From Streptomyces dengpaensis (GTDB taxonomy: Bacteria; Actinomycetota; Actinomycetes; Streptomycetales; Streptomycetaceae): a DNA stretch of 64,000 nt. Of this stretch, positions 1,523 through 57,792 are shown in pieces. The stretch covers positions 6,262,001 through 6,326,000 of the forward strand of contig NZ_CP026652.1 of NCBI RefSeq assembly GCF_002946835.1. The letters run 5' to 3'. The translations under genes were made by a program, and so were the position numbers. Numbering within the stretch: position 1 is the first letter of the stretch; every line of letters begins with the position of its first letter. The notes beneath the pieces were generated by a model. The model had not been told where the DNA came from and did no database searches. It saw only the letters and a program-made list of their open reading frames with translations.

Positions 1523-2674
1523 TTACTTCACAACGGCGGCGGCGAGCTTGGACAGGGGCTCGGCGAGCGCGTTGACCGCGTCCGACAGCTCCTTGCGGTC
1601 GGCCTCGCCGACCTTGTCGTACGAGGTGAAGTCGTAGGAGGTGTTGTCCGCGCGGTACTTGTCGAGCAGCGTGTTCAGCGCGGCGAACTGCTTGTCCAGC
1701 TCGGTGGTGAGCGCCGCGTCGTTCTCCTGGGCAACCGGCTTGAGGAGTTCGTACGACGTCTCGGCGCCCTCGACGTTGGCCTTGAAGTCGACCAGGTCCG
1801 TGTGCGAGTAGCGCTCCTCCTCGCCGGTGACCTTGCCGGTGGCGACCTCGTCGAGGAGCTCCTTGGCGCCGTTGGCCATGGAGGTCGGGGTGATCTCGGC
1901 CTTGCCGACCCGGTTCTGCCAGTCCGCGAGGTCCTTCACCAGCTGGTCGGCGAGCTCCTTGTCCCGGTCCGTGAGCTTCTTGTCCTTCCACAGCGAGCGT
2001 TCGAGGCGGTGCCAGCCGGTCCAGTCCTTCTCGAGGTCCTGGCCGTCCTCCAGACCGTCCTCGCGCAGGTCGACCTTCGGGTCGATGTCACCGAAGGACT
2101 CGGCGACCGGCTCGGTGCGCTCCCAGCCGATGCGGGAGGGCGCGTACGCCGCCTTCGCGGCCTCCATGTCGCCGTCCTTGACCGCCTTGACGAAGGTCTC
2201 GACCTTGGGCAGCGTCTCGTCGGCCTGCGTCTGCGCGTACTCGCGGTACGCGGCCACGGCCTTGTCCAGGCGCGGGTCGCGCTGGGCGGTTGAGCCGCCG
2301 GTGACCTTGATGTCCTGGCGGATGCCCTTGCCCTTCATACCCGGCTTGCAGGCGATCTGGTAATCGCCGGCCTTCACCTCGGCGGTGACCCGCTGCTTGG
2401 TGCCGGGGCCGATGTTCTCGCGCTCGGTGACGACCCGGTCGTCCGGGAAGAGGATGTAGACCTCGGTGACCTTGGAGCCCTTGTTCTCGACGGCCAGCTC
2501 GACGCTCCCGGCGGCCACCTCCGTCTTGGACACCTCGCACTTGTCGTCCGTCGCGGTCACGGTGATCACGCCGTCGCCGTCCCCCGAACTGCCTTTCTCG
2601 GTGCAGCCGGTGACAGCGGTCAAAGCCGCCACGGTGGCGGCGGCGGTGACGACGGAGAGTCTGACGGCGCGCAT
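1523..2674 (-). CDS. efeO: EfeO iron uptake lipoprotein (cupredoxin plus M75 domain)
   Basis: Extracytoplasmic iron-binding component of EfeUOB, 383 aa. The N-terminus is a lipoprotein-type signal ending TAVTGC, so the protein is probably lipid-anchored. A cupredoxin-like domain follows (about residues 30-120), then the helical M75/imelysin-like domain. The metal-binding HxxE motif of M75 is visible as WHRLERSLW. First gene of the efeO-efeB-efeU operon. The internal ATG at 2672-2674 is preferred over an upstream ATG because it begins directly with the signal peptide. Two iron-box-like sites lie 46-84 bases upstream. Confidence 0.93.
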   Translation of the reverse strand: MRAVRLSVVTAAATVAALTAVTGCTEKGSSGDGDGVITVTATDDKCEVSKTEVAAGSVELAVENKGSKVTEVYILFPDDRVVTERENIGPGTKQRVTAEVKAGDYQIACKPGMKGKGIRQDIKVTGGSTAQRDPRLDKAVAAYREYAQTQADETLPKVETFVKAVKDGDMEAAKAAYAPSRIGWERTEPVAESFGDIDPKVDLREDGLEDGQDLEKDWTGWHRLERSLWKDKKLTDRDKELADQLVKDLADWQNRVGKAEITPTSMANGAKELLDEVATGKVTGEEERYSHTDLVDFKANVEGAETSYELLKPVAQENDAALTTELDKQFAALNTLLDKYRADNTSYDFTSYDKVGEADRKELSDAVNALAEPLSKLAAAVVK

Positions 2675-2719
2675 GCGGGCTCCAGGAGTGGCGAACAATC
2701 GCGTGAGGGATCACGCAGT

Positions 2720-2758: not shown

Positions 2759-2955
2759 GTAGTACCTCGCGTGTGCGGTGATTCAGCTCTCATGGACGGT
2801 GTAAGTGCACGGGCCGATCACGGTGGTTGGCGGGCGCGGGCACGACCGGGCCTGCGTCGCCGGCCCGAAGGCCGGCTCATCCGCTCCTGGCCCCTGCCCG
2901 GGCGGTCCCGCGGCCTGGGACGGTCTCGCGGCGCGGGTGGTGTTTGAATGCTGGA

Positions 2956-3633
2956 GTGAGTAACTACGACGTGCTGCGGGTCTTCTGCGGACCCGGCGGC
3001 GGGTATGGCAATGAGCTCGCTGTAGTGCGCGAGGGCTCGGTGATGCCGGAGCGCGAGGAACGGCAGGCGTTCGCCGCGAAGCTCGGCTTCAGCGAGACCG
3101 TGTTCGTCGACGACCCCGAGCGTGGGGTCATCGACATCTACACGCCCACGCTGCGGCTGCCGTTCGCCGGGCATCCGTGCGTCGGGGTGGGCTGGCTGCT
3201 CGACGTGCCCGAACTGGTCACACCTGCCGGGGTGATCGGCGTACGGCTGGACGGCGAGTTCAGCTGGATCGAGGCGCGGGCGGAGTGGGCGCCGCCGCGC
3301 ACGCTGCGGCAGTACGGTTCCGCCGCCGAGATCGACGCGCTGCCCGTGCAGGCGCCGGGTGTGGGGGCACCTCCCACGCCTTTCGGGCAGTGGGGGAGGG
3401 TCTACGCCTGGGCCTGGGAGGACGAGGCGGCCGGGCGGGTACGGGCCCGCGCGTTTCCCGGGCGGGACGACGGAATCGACGAGGACGAGGCCACCGGGGC
3501 GGCGGCGCTGCTGCTGACCCAGCAGTTGGGCCGTGCGCTGAACATCGTCCAGGGGGTCGGGTCGCAGATGCTCACGGCGCCGCAGCCGGGGGGTTGGGTT
3601 GAGGTGGGGGGTCGGGTGCGGCTGGAGCGGTGA
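2956..3633 (+). CDS. PhzF-family epimerase/isomerase-like protein, short, with inserted repeat
   Basis: PhzF fold (diaminopimelate-epimerase-like) protein, 225 aa; the family is usually about 260-300 aa. Seen: DVLRVFCGPGGGYGNELAVV at the N-terminus (family GNPLAVV), LPFAGHPCVG (family GHPxxG) and DEDEATGAAA (family ExTGsA). The substrate is unknown. The GTG at 2956 is chosen because homology begins there. An oddity is the stretch GVGAPPTPFGQWGR, encoded at about 3360-3401. It comes from a 36-bp palindromic repeat that also occurs at 55732-55767, so the ORF has absorbed a repeat in frame. Whether the enzyme remains active cannot be told. Confidence 0.75.
   Translation: MSNYDVLRVFCGPGGGYGNELAVVREGSVMPEREERQAFAAKLGFSETVFVDDPERGVIDIYTPTLRLPFAGHPCVGVGWLLDVPELVTPAGVIGVRLDGEFSWIEARAEWAPPRTLRQYGSAAEIDALPVQAPGVGAPPTPFGQWGRVYAWAWEDEAAGRVRARAFPGRDDGIDEDEATGAAALLLTQQLGRALNIVQGVGSQMLTAPQPGGWVEVGGRVRLER
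3363..3398 (+). repeat. 36-bp palindromic interspersed repeat, copy 1 (inside a CDS)
   Basis: Begins GGGGGCACCTCCCAC and ends GCAGTGGGGGAG. The same 36-bp sequence, differing only in about six central bases, occurs in inverse orientation at 55732-55767. The outer arms are near-complementary, so it can form a hairpin. It is read in frame within the PhzF-like gene. Confidence 0.8.
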
Positions 3634-3696: not shown

Positions 3697-4374
3697 TCAC
3701 GCGGACAGGGGGAACTCTTCCCCGAGGGCACGGAAGACACCGGTGTTCAGGGCGAACGCCCGCTTGCATTCCGCGATGATGCGCTTTCTCTCCAGGTCGT
3801 CGGCGCGGACCCCGTCCAGCAGTTCGCGGTAACTCCGCTTGAACGCGGCCGGGTTGGAGATGTCCTCGAAGACGTAGAAGCGGACGCCGTCGCCCTTGCG
3901 GGCGAAGCCCCAGGTCTGCTCCGCCTTGCCGCGGATGATCTGGCCGCCGGAGAGGTCGCCGAGGTAGCGGGTGTAGTGGTGGGCGACATATCCGGCGGGC
4001 CACCGCCGGGCGCACTCAGCGACGCGGGCGGCGTACGCCTGGGTCGCGGGCAGCGCGGTGAGCGTCGCGCGCCAGCCGGGGCCCCGGAGGTGGGCCAGGT
4101 CGCGCGCGAGGGCGGTGCGGCGCAGCAGCTCGGGCCGGAGGAAGGGCCCGGCCACCGGATCGTCCGCCAGGCGCTCGACGTCCGCCTCCAGCGCCTCGTA
4201 CACGAACCACAGTTGCTCGGTGTAGCGCGCGTACGCGTCGACGCCGAGCCGGCCGCCGAGCAGGTCGCTCATGAATGTCGAGGTCTCGGCCTCGGTGTGC
4301 TGCTCGTGCGACGCGGTGCGGATGAGGGTCGAGAAGGCGGTGCTCGACATGTCCGTCGTGTCCGTCGCGTTCAT
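3697..4374 (-). CDS. biliverdin-producing heme oxygenase (HmuO/HO-1 family)
   Basis: Cytoplasmic heme oxygenase, 225 aa, which opens heme to biliverdin, CO and Fe2+. Family features: an N-terminal helix with the proximal His (TASHEQHTEAETSTF) and the distal-helix motif RYLGDLSGGQIIRG, whose glycines allow helix kinking over the heme. Length matches the family. The ATG at 4372-4374 is chosen because GGAGG lies a few bases upstream; an upstream ATG at 4413 has no such site. Its position near efeUOB and a palindromic iron-box-like site just upstream suggest iron-responsive expression. Confidence 0.92.
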   Translation of the reverse strand: MNATDTTDMSSTAFSTLIRTASHEQHTEAETSTFMSDLLGGRLGVDAYARYTEQLWFVYEALEADVERLADDPVAGPFLRPELLRRTALARDLAHLRGPGWRATLTALPATQAYAARVAECARRWPAGYVAHHYTRYLGDLSGGQIIRGKAEQTWGFARKGDGVRFYVFEDISNPAAFKRSYRELLDGVRADDLERKRIIAECKRAFALNTGVFRALGEEFPLSA

Positions 4375-4417
4375 GAGGCCTCCGGTGCCGAAGAGGACGA
4401 GCGTTGATCGCATCTTC

Positions 4418-55656: not shown

Positions 55657-55869
55657 TCACATGTCCAGCACGATGCGGTCCCCGCGTGCCCGCGAAACAC
55701 AGATCAGCATCGAGTCGCCACGCTCCGCGTCCTCCCCCACTGCCTTAAGGACGTGGGAGGTGCCCCCAAGTTCGTCCCGGTGCTCGATCTCCCCTTCCAG
55801 GACCCGCTGTTGGCACGCGTCCGCGGACGAGCGCGCGCCGCGGGGCAGACGGGAGTTTGTCGACAGGGC
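55657..55869 (-). pseudogene. relic of a phthalate-dioxygenase-reductase-type ferredoxin domain
   Basis: 71 codons, in frame with and directly following the stop of the 55870-57792 gene, no start codon of its own. CQQRVLEGEIEHRDE and then DSMLICVSRARGDRIVLDM followed by TGA match the end of the C-terminal 2Fe-2S domain of PDR/VanB oxidoreductases. Between these segments the 36-bp palindromic repeat (55732-55767) is inserted in frame. The flavin and NAD domains are missing. Confidence 0.7.
55732..55767 (-). repeat. 36-bp palindromic interspersed repeat, copy 2
   Basis: Read on the minus strand it starts GGGGGCACCTCCCACG and ends GGCAGTGGGGGAG, identical to 3363-3398 except for about six bases in the middle (GTCCTTAAG here). 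Inserted in frame in the oxidoreductase relic. Confidence 0.85.
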
Positions 55870-57792
55870 CTAGCGCAGTCCGCTGATCTGCCTGCCGTCG
55901 GTCAGCTTCCCCTTCAGGCCCGCCTGCGCCCCCTGCTTCGTCCGTACGGTGAGCAGGGAGCCCTGTGCCGATCCGTCGACGCCGCCCATCGCGCGGATCG
56001 ACGCGGTGTCCCTGCTTCCCGCCGCGAGGAGGTACCAGGTTCCCGCGCCCGACTTCCACAGCACGCCCGCCAGGACATGGGGGTCGCGGGAGCCGCACGC
56101 GGGGGAGTTCTCGGCCTGCGCGGCGACCGCCCCGTACACGTTGCCCGGGGTGTGGAACTGGGCGAGCACGCGCGTGCCGCCGCCCCGCCAGGTGTCGGCC
56201 CGGGTGCAGACCCACTCCGCGCTGCCGCTCGCGTCGGGCAGCGGCTGCCGCGCGTACTGCCAGGCGTTCACGGACCGTACGCCCTGGGACCGCACGGAGG
56301 CGAGGGAGCAGGCGAAGGGCGACCAGTCGCGCAGGGCCTCGGCGCCGGACGCCCCGTGGGGTGCCGTGGGGCGGCCCGAGGTGAGGCGCGCCGGGGTCAG
56401 CTCGCCGAGGTCGGTCATCAGGTGTGTGCCGGAGTCGTCCTTCAGCTGGAGTACGTTCCACGACGTGCACGCACCGGTCTTCTGGACGGGGCCGGCCAGC
56501 GGCGAGGTGACGCCGTCCGCCGAGAGGGTGAGGTCCATCGCCCCGGAGGACGGCTTCAGCAGATCCCGCTCGGCGGCCCTGGTCACCCAAGGAGCCGTCA
56601 GATAGCGGACGTTGCCGTCGGTCCGGTCCAGGACCACCGCGCTCGCCCCGGCCCCGGTCGCGCCGTCGACCCGCGCGAAGTCGAGGGCCGCCCCGCTCGT
56701 GCCGCCCTTCGGCTCGGCATACCGGGCGATGCGCAGACCGTCGTAGAGGAGCACCACGCGCGCCTGGTCGACCTCGCCCGCGTACAGCAGCTGCGGCGGT
56801 CCGGGCGGGCCGCCCGACGGGGTGCCGGGCGTCACCGAGACCTGCACGGACTCGCCGGGCCGCGCCCACACGGCGAGCGCGCGGCGCAGCAGCGCGGAGT
56901 CCTCGACGAGGTTCCCGCGTGCGGGCCACACGGAGAAGTCGGTGCGCGCCGACGACTGCCAGGCATTGCTGGCGACCTTCGTCAACAGGCCGGGGTTCAG
57001 GGCGGCTTCGGCCGCCGGATTCTGCGCGTACGAGGGTGCCGCGGCGCCGTCGGGGCCCCACCCGTCGCCGGGCAGCCCGAGCAGCGCGCCGCACACGGCC
57101 ACGGCCGCGGTCGCGGCGAGCGCGGCCTTCATGTGCTGTCTGCGCCGCATCAGGTCGGTGGGCCGCGCCTGGAGCGAACAGGGGTCGAACTCGGGGGAGT
57201 TGAGCAGGGCGTCGGGCGCCTCGATCCCGCCGGCCTCCGCAAGCGCCGCGCCCGGGTCTTCGACCCCGGCCGCCGTCAGCACTTTCCGTACGTCCGCCGC
57301 GGGCAGCTTCTCCAGACCGCGCAGCACATACGCGGCGCGGGCCGGCCCCGAGAGCGCGGACAGCCGCTGGTCCAGGGCGAGTTCGTCGGCCCCGCCCGAG
57401 CGCGGGAAGAGCCTCAGGCCCCACACCTGCGGCAGCAGCGGCGGCAGCTGGGACCGCTTGGGCCACGCCCGCCGCTTCAGCGGAAGGCCCGCCTCCAAGG
57501 CCGTACGCACCACGTGGAGGCGTACGAAGGCATAGCCCGGGTCTCCGTCGCGCCCGGTCGCCTGCGCCGGGATCACGGACGCGGACGCGCGGCGTCTGGG
57601 CAGCGCGCGCTGGGTGAGAGCGTGCGCGGTCAGCACCCGGCGGTTGCGGCCGAGGCTCGGCGGCAGCACCAGATAGGCCAGCCGGACGAGCCGCGGATAG
57701 TGCTCGACGAGGGCGGCCTCGGCCTGCTCGACATCGACGACCGGGCCGGAGGAGGCGGGTGAGGGGTGCGGGGCGACATCCTGTGACTGCAC
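55870..57792 (-). CDS. membrane-anchored protein with sigma-factor-like N-terminus, function unknown
   Basis: 640 aa from GTG 57790-57792 (a TTG three codons upstream is also possible; no clear SD for either). Residues about 20-190 resemble a degenerate ECF sigma factor: EAALVEHYPRLVRLAYLVLP like region 2.1, and LDQRLSALSGPARAAYVLRG then LEKLPAADVRKVL like region 4. A basic RRRQHMK precedes one transmembrane helix (about 222-240), followed by about 400 extracytoplasmic residues without a recognised domain, with several Cys (CTSWN, FACSL, EWVCTR, PACGSR). It may sense an external signal. Confidence 0.7.
   Translation of the reverse strand: MQSQDVAPHPSPASSGPVVDVEQAEAALVEHYPRLVRLAYLVLPPSLGRNRRVLTAHALTQRALPRRRASASVIPAQATGRDGDPGYAFVRLHVVRTALEAGLPLKRRAWPKRSQLPPLLPQVWGLRLFPRSGGADELALDQRLSALSGPARAAYVLRGLEKLPAADVRKVLTAAGVEDPGAALAEAGGIEAPDALLNSPEFDPCSLQARPTDLMRRRQHMKAALAATAAVAVCGALLGLPGDGWGPDGAAAPSYAQNPAAEAALNPGLLTKVASNAWQSSARTDFSVWPARGNLVEDSALLRRALAVWARPGESVQVSVTPGTPSGGPPGPPQLLYAGEVDQARVVLLYDGLRIARYAEPKGGTSGAALDFARVDGATGAGASAVVLDRTDGNVRYLTAPWVTRAAERDLLKPSSGAMDLTLSADGVTSPLAGPVQKTGACTSWNVLQLKDDSGTHLMTDLGELTPARLTSGRPTAPHGASGAEALRDWSPFACSLASVRSQGVRSVNAWQYARQPLPDASGSAEWVCTRADTWRGGGTRVLAQFHTPGNVYGAVAAQAENSPACGSRDPHVLAGVLWKSGAGTWYLLAAGSRDTASIRAMGGVDGSAQGSLLTVRTKQGAQAGLKGKLTDGRQISGLR

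What the first reader, a model, noticed from the sequence alone, without database searches (positions are those of the whole stretch)
3363..3398. Palindromic mobile-type repeat read in frame inside a PhzF-like gene
A 36-bp sequence with near-complementary ends lies inside the CDS, adds about 12 residues and keeps the frame. The same element sits at 55732-55767 within a different gene relic. This suggests a non-autonomous palindromic element (REP/RPE-like) that can insert into coding sequence.
Basis: seen in the sequence. Interest (0 to 1): 0.7.

Follow-up and report, generated by a model that had tools for sequence, protein, structure and literature searches.

The report
Hairpin DNA insert inside Streptomyces genes
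A tiny hairpin-shaped DNA repeat, scattered through Streptomyces genomes, has repeatedly landed inside genes while keeping their reading frame, adding a short foreign peptide to the encoded proteins; what moves it is unknown.

Summary
A 35-bp core (37-bp unit) lies at 3362-3398 in a PhzF-family gene and, reversed, at 55732-55768 in a truncated PDR/VanB-type oxidoreductase gene; both are read in frame. It belongs to a dispersed hairpin family: 20 strict copies in this 8.7-Mb genome (reversed-pattern control 0), strict matches in 104 of 150 genomes of the genus, up to 113 in one. The ends are constant (TGGGGGCACCTCCC...TGGGGGAG); the upper stem varies with compensatory changes. 27 of 29 aligned relatives lack the PhzF insert; the other two carry different insertions there. 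Of 121 copies classified, 42 lie in frame inside genes and 3 shift the frame (second sample: 11 and 2 of 77). Hosts include rho, era-like, pheT-like, PGI and four acyl-CoA dehydrogenase genes. Filled and empty copies within one genome show the unit replacing 4-5 target bases; units also nest in each other. It behaves like Rickettsia palindromic elements, but lacks the GTAG/CGTC tag of known REP families and shows no target duplication, and the most copy-rich genome has neither a Y1 transposase nor a reverse transcriptase match; other movers were not tested. I saw no description of it in ten searches of an open-access library.

The parts
3362..3398 (+). Palindromic unit, 37 bp (TGGGGGCACCTCCC-ACGCCTTTCGGGCAG-TGGGGGAG), inserted in frame in the PhzF-family gene; read as ..GVGAPPTPFGQWGR..
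   Evidence: repeated unit, absent from 27 of 29 aligned relatives, net +33 nt against most
3372..3395 (+). Hairpin: arms TCCCACGCC and GGC-A-GTGGGG around the loop TTTCG, with 5' tail TGGGGGCACC and 3' tail GAG
   Evidence: DNA fold of the region z-score -2.5 (that minimum-energy fold also has a second small hairpin on the left); compensatory stem changes across family members
2953..3633 (+). Host gene: PhzF-family protein, 225 aa, reading frame intact through the element
   Evidence: Pfam PF02567, E 4.4e-12; 4902 homologues at E<=1e-20 among 7998 scored candidates
55732..55768 (-). Second copy of the 37-bp unit (core GGGGGCACCTCCCACGTCCTTAAGGCAGTGGGGGA), read in frame as GGTSHVLKAVGE
55657..55839 (-). 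Host relic: C-terminal part of a truncated PDR/VanB-type oxidoreductase gene, ending ..MLICVSRARGDRIVLDM-stop
   Evidence: translation; tblastn against plasmid records, E 6e-6, annotated PDR/VanB family oxidoreductase; PDB 7ylr and 2pia; no Pfam match
55835..55873 (+). End of a larger MITE-like repeat of this genome (..GCGGGGCAGACGGGAGTTTGTCGACAGGGCCTAG) that borders the relic
   Evidence: L279, G000:C1:6317835-6317873

Best explanation
This is one copy of a family of very small (about 31-44 bp), non-autonomous, hairpin-forming mobile elements of Streptomycetaceae. A copy of the hairpin, with its constant tails TGGGGG(CACC) and GGGGAG, is pasted into a short purine-rich target of the form NRRMG or AGTG, and 4-5 target bases are exchanged for the unit. 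The insertion machinery acts in trans and is not encoded by the element (inferred). Insertions that stop or shift a gene are purged (inferred), so copies surviving inside genes are nearly all in frame and add about 9-13 residues, most often the Gly/Ser-rich GGTSxxx...GG, at places that tolerate it. Shown: repetition, empty sites, frame preservation, hairpin covariation, nesting, replacement of target bases. Inferred: continuing mobility, the hairpin as the recognised feature, and a trans-acting enzyme or host replication/repair as the agent.
For: 20 copies with control 0; 104 of 150 genomes, up to 113 copies, one control hit in all 150. PhzF insert absent from 27 of 29 relatives aligned. For seven other host genes, 48 of 50 relative rows are without the element, one Rho row has a partial one and one row of an unnamed gene a diverged relative. 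In frame 42, frameshift 3, of 121 copies; 11 and 2 of 77 in a second, named sample; binomial against 1/3 on 42 of 45 and 11 of 13: 4e-17 and 2e-4 (related copies are not independent). Compensatory stem changes: 9 cells against 2.8 shuffled, and 5 against 1.3, 0 of 500 shuffles as high in either. Filled and empty copies of a MITE-like repeat in the same genome, and 13 nested composites in the loci held, show target bases replaced.
Against: No enzyme was found, and only two candidate families were tested. No insertion was seen to occur. Empty sites outside this genome are only 69-92% identical, so boundaries there are uncertain by a few bases. In the covariation counts the number of pairs with a double change does not exceed the shuffles (312 and 387 of 500 as high). 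Some copies are shared between genomes at the same site (FdhD, PGI, L198/L222), so counts overstate independent events. Intergenic copies are common: 58 of 121, 53 of 77. At one MITE place 2 of 8 filled copies have different right borders.
Confidence: 0.8

Rival explanations
1. A REP in the strict sense, mobilised by a RAYT-like Y1 (IS200/IS605-type) transposase.
For: Small imperfect palindrome with a constant head. Y1_Tnp occurs in the own genome (4 matches), and strict-element genomes are somewhat more frequent among Y1-positive ones: 38 of 47 against 66 of 103, Fisher p 0.055.
Against: With the sister form counted too, 41 of 47 against 79 of 103, p 0.19. 66 strict-element genomes have no Y1 match, among them the two richest, G089 (113 copies) and G096 (47). 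No GTAG or CGTC tag at either end of the consensus.
Confidence: 0.12
2. No transposase at all: copies spread by hairpin-driven template switching or fork restart during host DNA replication, with microhomology at GG and AG.
For: Neither Y1 nor reverse transcriptase gives a match in the most copy-rich genome. Target bases are lost rather than duplicated, and units nest at one another's tips.
Against: Template switching should give variable junctions, whereas constant ends and 4-5 replaced bases recur. Other transposase classes were not tested.
Confidence: 0.25
3. A functional host motif (terminator, protein-binding site or mRNA element) kept by selection rather than a mobile element.
For: It can form a stable hairpin, and many copies are intergenic (58 of 121).
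Against: No strict match in 46 of 150 genomes of the genus (16 of those 46 have the sister form), absent at orthologous sites in most relatives read, in frame inside coding sequence, and nested in itself.
Confidence: 0.05
4. An ordinary lineage-specific indel in PhzF; the second copy is coincidence.
For: PhzF length varies at this place.
Against: 20 copies in the genome against 0 in the control; the same unit sits in many unrelated genes.
Confidence: 0.01

Closest known systems
Rickettsia palindromic elements (RPE; protein-coding palindromes)
   Same: Palindromic, dispersed, found between and inside genes, read in frame inside conserved proteins (PMC10969869 and PMC2229807: passages seen; the Ogata 2000/2002 papers only as cited there).
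   Different: RPEs are described there as about 105-150 bp in Rickettsia. Here units are about 31-44 bp, GC-rich, in Streptomycetaceae, with ends TGGGGGCACC / GGGGAG, and replace target bases.
REP elements, GTAG- and CGTC-tagged superfamilies (RPE-4 and RPE-6 belong to CGTC)
   Same: 20-40-bp hairpins in high copy; some are intragenic and encode residues; CGTC families also lack a dedicated transposase (PMC3733652: abstract, passages and one section read).
   Different: Neither tag is present; the constant ends are different. The word Streptomyces has 0 occurrences in that paper.
MITEs, such as the CTAG-flanked MITE-like repeat of this same genome
   Same: Short, non-autonomous, multi-copy.
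   Different: No terminal inverted repeats and no target duplication seen; the element inserts into that MITE-like repeat rather than being one.

Membership tests
Rickettsia palindromic elements (RPE-like, functional sense) | Palindromic sequence able to form a hairpin | tested here: met
   (copy 1 only; copy 2 not better than shuffles)
Rickettsia palindromic elements (RPE-like, functional sense) | Inserted in frame in protein-coding genes, absent from orthologues | tested here: met
Rickettsia palindromic elements (strict family) | Size about 105-150 bp, in Rickettsia | tested here: not met
   units mostly 31-44 bp; the 80 listed loci of a capped scan are Streptomyces, Kitasatospora and Actinacidiphila
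Rickettsia palindromic elements | Element-encoded peptide present in the expressed protein | not testable with these tools
   no proteomics available
REP, GTAG or CGTC superfamily | Terminal GTAG or CGTC tetranucleotide | tested here: not met
   consensus ends TGGGGG...GGGGAG, reverse complement CTCCCC...CCCCCA; definition from PMC3733652
REP mobilised by RAYT | Associated Y1 tyrosine transposase in the genome | tested here: not met
   66 of 104 strict-element genomes have no Y1_Tnp match, including G089 with 113 copies
MITE | Terminal inverted repeats and target site duplication | tested here: not met
   left end TGGGGGCACC and inverted right end CTCCCCCA do not form TIRs; within-genome filled/empty pairs show 4-5 bases replaced, none duplicated
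Rfam RNA family | Match to a curated structured RNA | tested here: not met
   0 matches at gathering score in the window

The most novel reading that the evidence does not exclude
A class of transposase-independent 'hairpin substitution' elements: a 31-44-bp hairpin is copied into a 4-5-base purine-rich target by host replication or repair, replacing the target bases. Its length classes and stop-free Gly/Ser frame make it pre-adapted to live inside essential proteins of a whole bacterial family.
Probability: 0.2. Interest if true: 0.85.

Novelty: new variant of a known kind. Interest (0 to 1): 0.6.

Why it matters
Selfish palindromes inside coding genes are known mainly from Rickettsia, with scattered intragenic REPs elsewhere (PMC10969869, PMC3733652, passages). 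Here a GC-rich counterpart sits in frame in conserved proteins such as Rho, an Era-like GTPase, a PheT-like protein and PGI across Streptomyces, organisms easier to handle in the laboratory than Rickettsia. That makes the open question of how protein-coding palindromes move, and what their peptides do to proteins, directly testable. It also warns that short linker-like segments (GGTSRSSEAESGG, GAPPTPFGQWG) in Streptomyces proteins can be insertion debris rather than function.

Tried and rejected
Y1/RAYT transposase as the mover: tested in 24 and then 150 genomes, not required. Reverse transcriptase (PF00078): match in 7 of 10 copy-rich genomes and in 2 of 10 without a strict match, but none in the richest, G089, nor in G054 and G120. 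Three of those ten 'without' genomes do carry the sister form (G014 14, G031 1, G052 1), so they are not truly free of the family. Phage spread: no match to one 38-bp query; plasmids: 8 records, all Streptomyces, with one 42-base query. Structured RNA: none in the window. An AlphaFold model of PhzF to place the insert failed (mean pLDDT 40.9) and is not used; PDB relatives of PhzF align well only over the N-terminal part. The DNA-fold test is clear for copy 1 (z -2.5) but not for copy 2 (z -0.8 and -0.5). No paper describing this family was seen, but most subscription journals are not in the library.

In the classifier, copies with one coding flank (17 of 121; 10 of 77), intergenic copies (58; 53) and two-gene cases (1; 1) were not counted as in frame; 9 copies near locus ends were skipped. 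The classifier under-calls: it put the Era-like and PspA copies under 'one side' and the window's copy 2 under intergenic, although the translations run through; they are not among the 42. The 121 come from 130 loci that I picked from capped listings: all 20 of the own genome, 30 of the 113 of G089, 80 others. In one search, 4 of 120 proteins did not fit the search expression and were read by eye. In some searches I set the first T and last G of every row by hand to the consensus; I chose 14 of the known 35-base cores.

Full report
What is there. In the window, a 35-bp core GGGGGCACCTCCCACGCCTTTCGGGCAGTGGGGGA lies at 3363-3397 on the + strand, and a second core, differing at a few bases, at 55733-55767 on the - strand. 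With the T before and G after that most copies have, the unit is 37 bp (3362-3398 and 55732-55768). Copy 1 is inside a 225-aa PhzF-family gene (PF02567, E 4.4e-12). Copy 2 is inside the last 60 codons of a truncated gene and is also in frame: RVLEGEIEHRDEL-GGTSHVLKAVGE-DAERGDSMLICVSRARGDRIVLDM. That piece has no Pfam match, but tblastn finds it in 92 plasmid records (E<=0.01), and 8 of the 10 rows listed are annotated PDR/VanB family oxidoreductase, the other two having no annotation; the PDB relative 7ylr aligns on both sides of the insert in that frame with 8 residues fewer.

Not chance. A two-armed pattern (GGGGGCACCTCCC, 6-30 bases, TGGGGGA) hits 20 places in the 8.71-Mb genome; the reversed pattern hits 0. 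A sequence model built from those 20 gives 101 hits at E<=1, 72 of them at E<=1e-3, 150 of 9905 candidates scored. In a class-wide sample 20 of 296 genomes match, own included; the only one outside the genus has a single hit (G411). A sister form with head TGGGGGTCCCCCC and the same tail occurs in 94 of 150 genomes, 24 times in this one; 120 of 150 have one form or the other.

Anatomy. The constant parts are TGGGGGCACCTCCC on the left and TGGGGGAG on the right; between them is a variable upper stem and loop. Core lengths in the loci held cluster at 29, 30, 33, 35 and 39, with a few up to 48. Predicted RNA-parameter hairpins of four types pair TCCC plus the upper stem with its partner and GGGG, leaving 5' TGGGGGCACC unpaired. 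Among all 11 distinct 30-base cores 98.9% of pair cells are standard, with 9 double-sided changes against 2.8 in shuffles; among 14 chosen 35-base cores 98.4%, with 5 against 1.3 (0 of 500 shuffles as high in either); the number of pairs with such changes (2 and 1) is not above the shuffles. So pairing is kept while letters change, at a few positions.

Empty sites. PhzF: 56 of 61 genomes match the query, own included, a few of them only through the element; 29 relatives were given loci and aligned. 27 lack the segment (net gap 33 nt, or 30 in nine with an extra codon); the two others (L095, L097) carry different palindromic insertions at the same point. Of the 120 best protein homologues (of 4902), 57 show the short form (55 by expression, 2 by eye), 18 the PhzF-type insert (the own protein included), and 45 another insert, mostly like ..ERSEMGVPPDEVWGR... 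The list is biased towards inserts because the query has one. For seven other host genes of this genome, nine relatives gave 61 matching places; 50 were read: FdhD 5 of 5 empty, Rho 4 of 5 (one partial element), the TPP enzyme 8 of 8, an unnamed gene 8 of 9 (G024 has a diverged relative), the Era-like gene 9 of 9 (G024 has a possible remnant), glycosyltransferase 5 of 5, PspA 9 of 9.

Frame. I scored the coding potential of 180 bases on each side, with codon usage from the window. Of 121 distinct copies, 42 lie in one gene with the frame kept, 3 shift it, 1 lies between two coding stretches, 17 have one coding side, 58 are intergenic. In the 80 named loci, 77 copies: 11, 2, 1, 10, 53. At 2000 random positions of the named loci, 981 read as coding in one frame on both sides, 63 as coding otherwise on both sides, 676 on one side, 280 on none. 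So in that sample copies are depleted in genes, but where they are in genes they are nearly always in frame (binomial against 1/3: 4e-17 and 2e-4). The 42 are not 42 events: FdhD (L001/L201), PGI (L205/L224), L198/L222 and L179/L183 share sites. The 42 reading frames, and those of the Era-like and PspA copies, run through the element without a stop. 27 of 42 read the frame GGTSxx..., 9 the reverse strand, 6 other forward frames, PhzF among them. 39-base cores dominate in genes (21 of 42) and 29-base cores between genes (26 of 58); the commonest 29-base core has a TAG in the GGTS frame.

Hosts. Pfam names FdhD, Rho, a TPP enzyme, a glycosyltransferase, a GTPase with KH domain, PspA, a protein with B3/4 and tRNA-binding domains, PGI and acyl-CoA dehydrogenase; one of the ten scanned has no family. 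Ten more give an ABC ATPase twice, aromatic lyase, solute-binding protein, acyl-CoA dehydrogenase three times, MMPL, prolyl oligopeptidase and aldehyde dehydrogenase. 'Era', 'PheT' and 'KorB' are my readings of those domains from recall. Four acyl-CoA dehydrogenase genes (L192 of G022; L195, L196, L200 of G124) have the insert at the same place, before a (D/E)(W/Y)(I/V)(L/V)(N/D)G motif; in the solved relative 3sf6 the alignment to L200 skips 12 residues there. That this is a beta-turn is from recall. Site reuse: one gene (ABC ATPase in L172) carries the element in opposite orientations in two genomes at the same point (L172, L281), and one unnamed gene carries two hairpin types at one point in two genomes (L179, L183).

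How it inserts. The cleanest comparisons are inside one genome. A MITE-like repeat of this genome (ends CTAGGTCCTGTCGTCAAACTCCC / GGGAGTTTGACGACAGGGCCTAG) has, among the 25 loci printed, 8 copies filled and 12 empty at one place and 3 filled and 5 empty at another (counted by eye). Place 1: GCGGCGAG-AGTG-CGTGCC (AGTG in 8 empty copies, AGGG in 4) becomes GCGGCGAG-unit-CGTGC in 6 of the 8 filled; the other two (L251, L255) have a different right border. Place 2: GCGGGGC-AGACG-GGAGTTTG becomes GCGGGGC-unit-GGAGTTTG. So 4 or 5 bases are exchanged for 37. Nested units tell the same: in this genome TGGGGGTCCCCCCGCTC-GAGCG-AAGCCGAGAGTGGGGGAG (present intact) has GAGCG replaced by a whole unit (one copy, L043, lacks one base more), and in G089 TGGGGGCACCTCC-CAGCG-GTAGCTGGGGGAG has CAGCG replaced; 13 nested composites were found in the loci held, one three deep. 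In genes the replaced bases look like CGACG (FdhD, TPP enzyme), CGGCG (the unnamed gene), CGGAG (Rho, PspA) and AGTG (PhzF) (read by eye, flanks 69-92% identical, uncertain by a few bases; the glycosyltransferase and Era-like sites fit less clearly). I read a target NRRMG or AGTG. A 41-base unit minus 5, or a 37-base unit minus 4, keeps the frame, so part of the frame excess may come from unit length rather than selection.

Who moves it. Not shown. Y1_Tnp matches in 47 of 150 genomes; the strict element is in 38 of those 47 and in 66 of the other 103 (p 0.055); with the sister form 41 of 47 and 79 of 103 (p 0.19). G089 and G096, the two richest, lack it. Reverse transcriptase matches in 7 of 10 copy-rich genomes and 2 of 10 without a strict match, but not in G089. 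No phage record matched one 38-bp query; 8 plasmid records matched one 42-base query, all Streptomyces. I think a trans-acting enzyme not yet named is somewhat more likely than host replication alone, because ends and replaced lengths recur.

Compared with what is known. It works like Rickettsia palindromic elements (PMC10969869, PMC2229807: passages read) and like intragenic REPs (PMC3733652: abstract, passages and one section read). It is not a member of the GTAG or CGTC superfamilies, because neither tag is present, and it fails the MITE test, because no TIR or target duplication was seen. In the open-access library I saw no description of this family; most subscription journals are not in it, so earlier reports may exist.

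Noticed in passing
G000 loci L251-L279; window 55835-55873: A MITE-like repeat with long terminal inverted repeats and CTAG at its ends; a second type with ends CTAAGCGGC..CCGGGGAAGT shares its core. One end lies beside the relic in the window. Its IS-family assignment was not tested.
   Followed up: partly
P0006, P0012 and others; L095 in G016: The PhzF site holds another insert (mostly like ERSEMGVPPDEVWGR) in 45 of the 120 best homologues, apparently from the TGGGGGTCCCCCC sister form plus an upstream GAGCGAAGCGAGA piece.
   Followed up: partly
G089 loci L051-L080: Many copies sit inside other, larger palindromic contexts (GTTGTGGGCAGTCGTTCCGCAGGGCG[element]GGGTGGGCACAAC), suggesting further repeat families in this small genome.
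   Followed up: no
20 genomes: Reverse transcriptase matches in 7 of 10 copy-rich genomes and in 2 of 10 without a strict match, though not in the richest; not corrected for genome size or kinship.
   Followed up: no
G411:C1:2460573-2460605: A single strict match in an actinobacterium of another family of the class: possible horizontal transfer or chance.
   Followed up: no
window 1523-2698 and 3697-4413: PhzF is flanked on the - strand by a protein with imelysin and cupredoxin domains and by a heme oxygenase, perhaps an iron-related neighbourhood.
   Followed up: no
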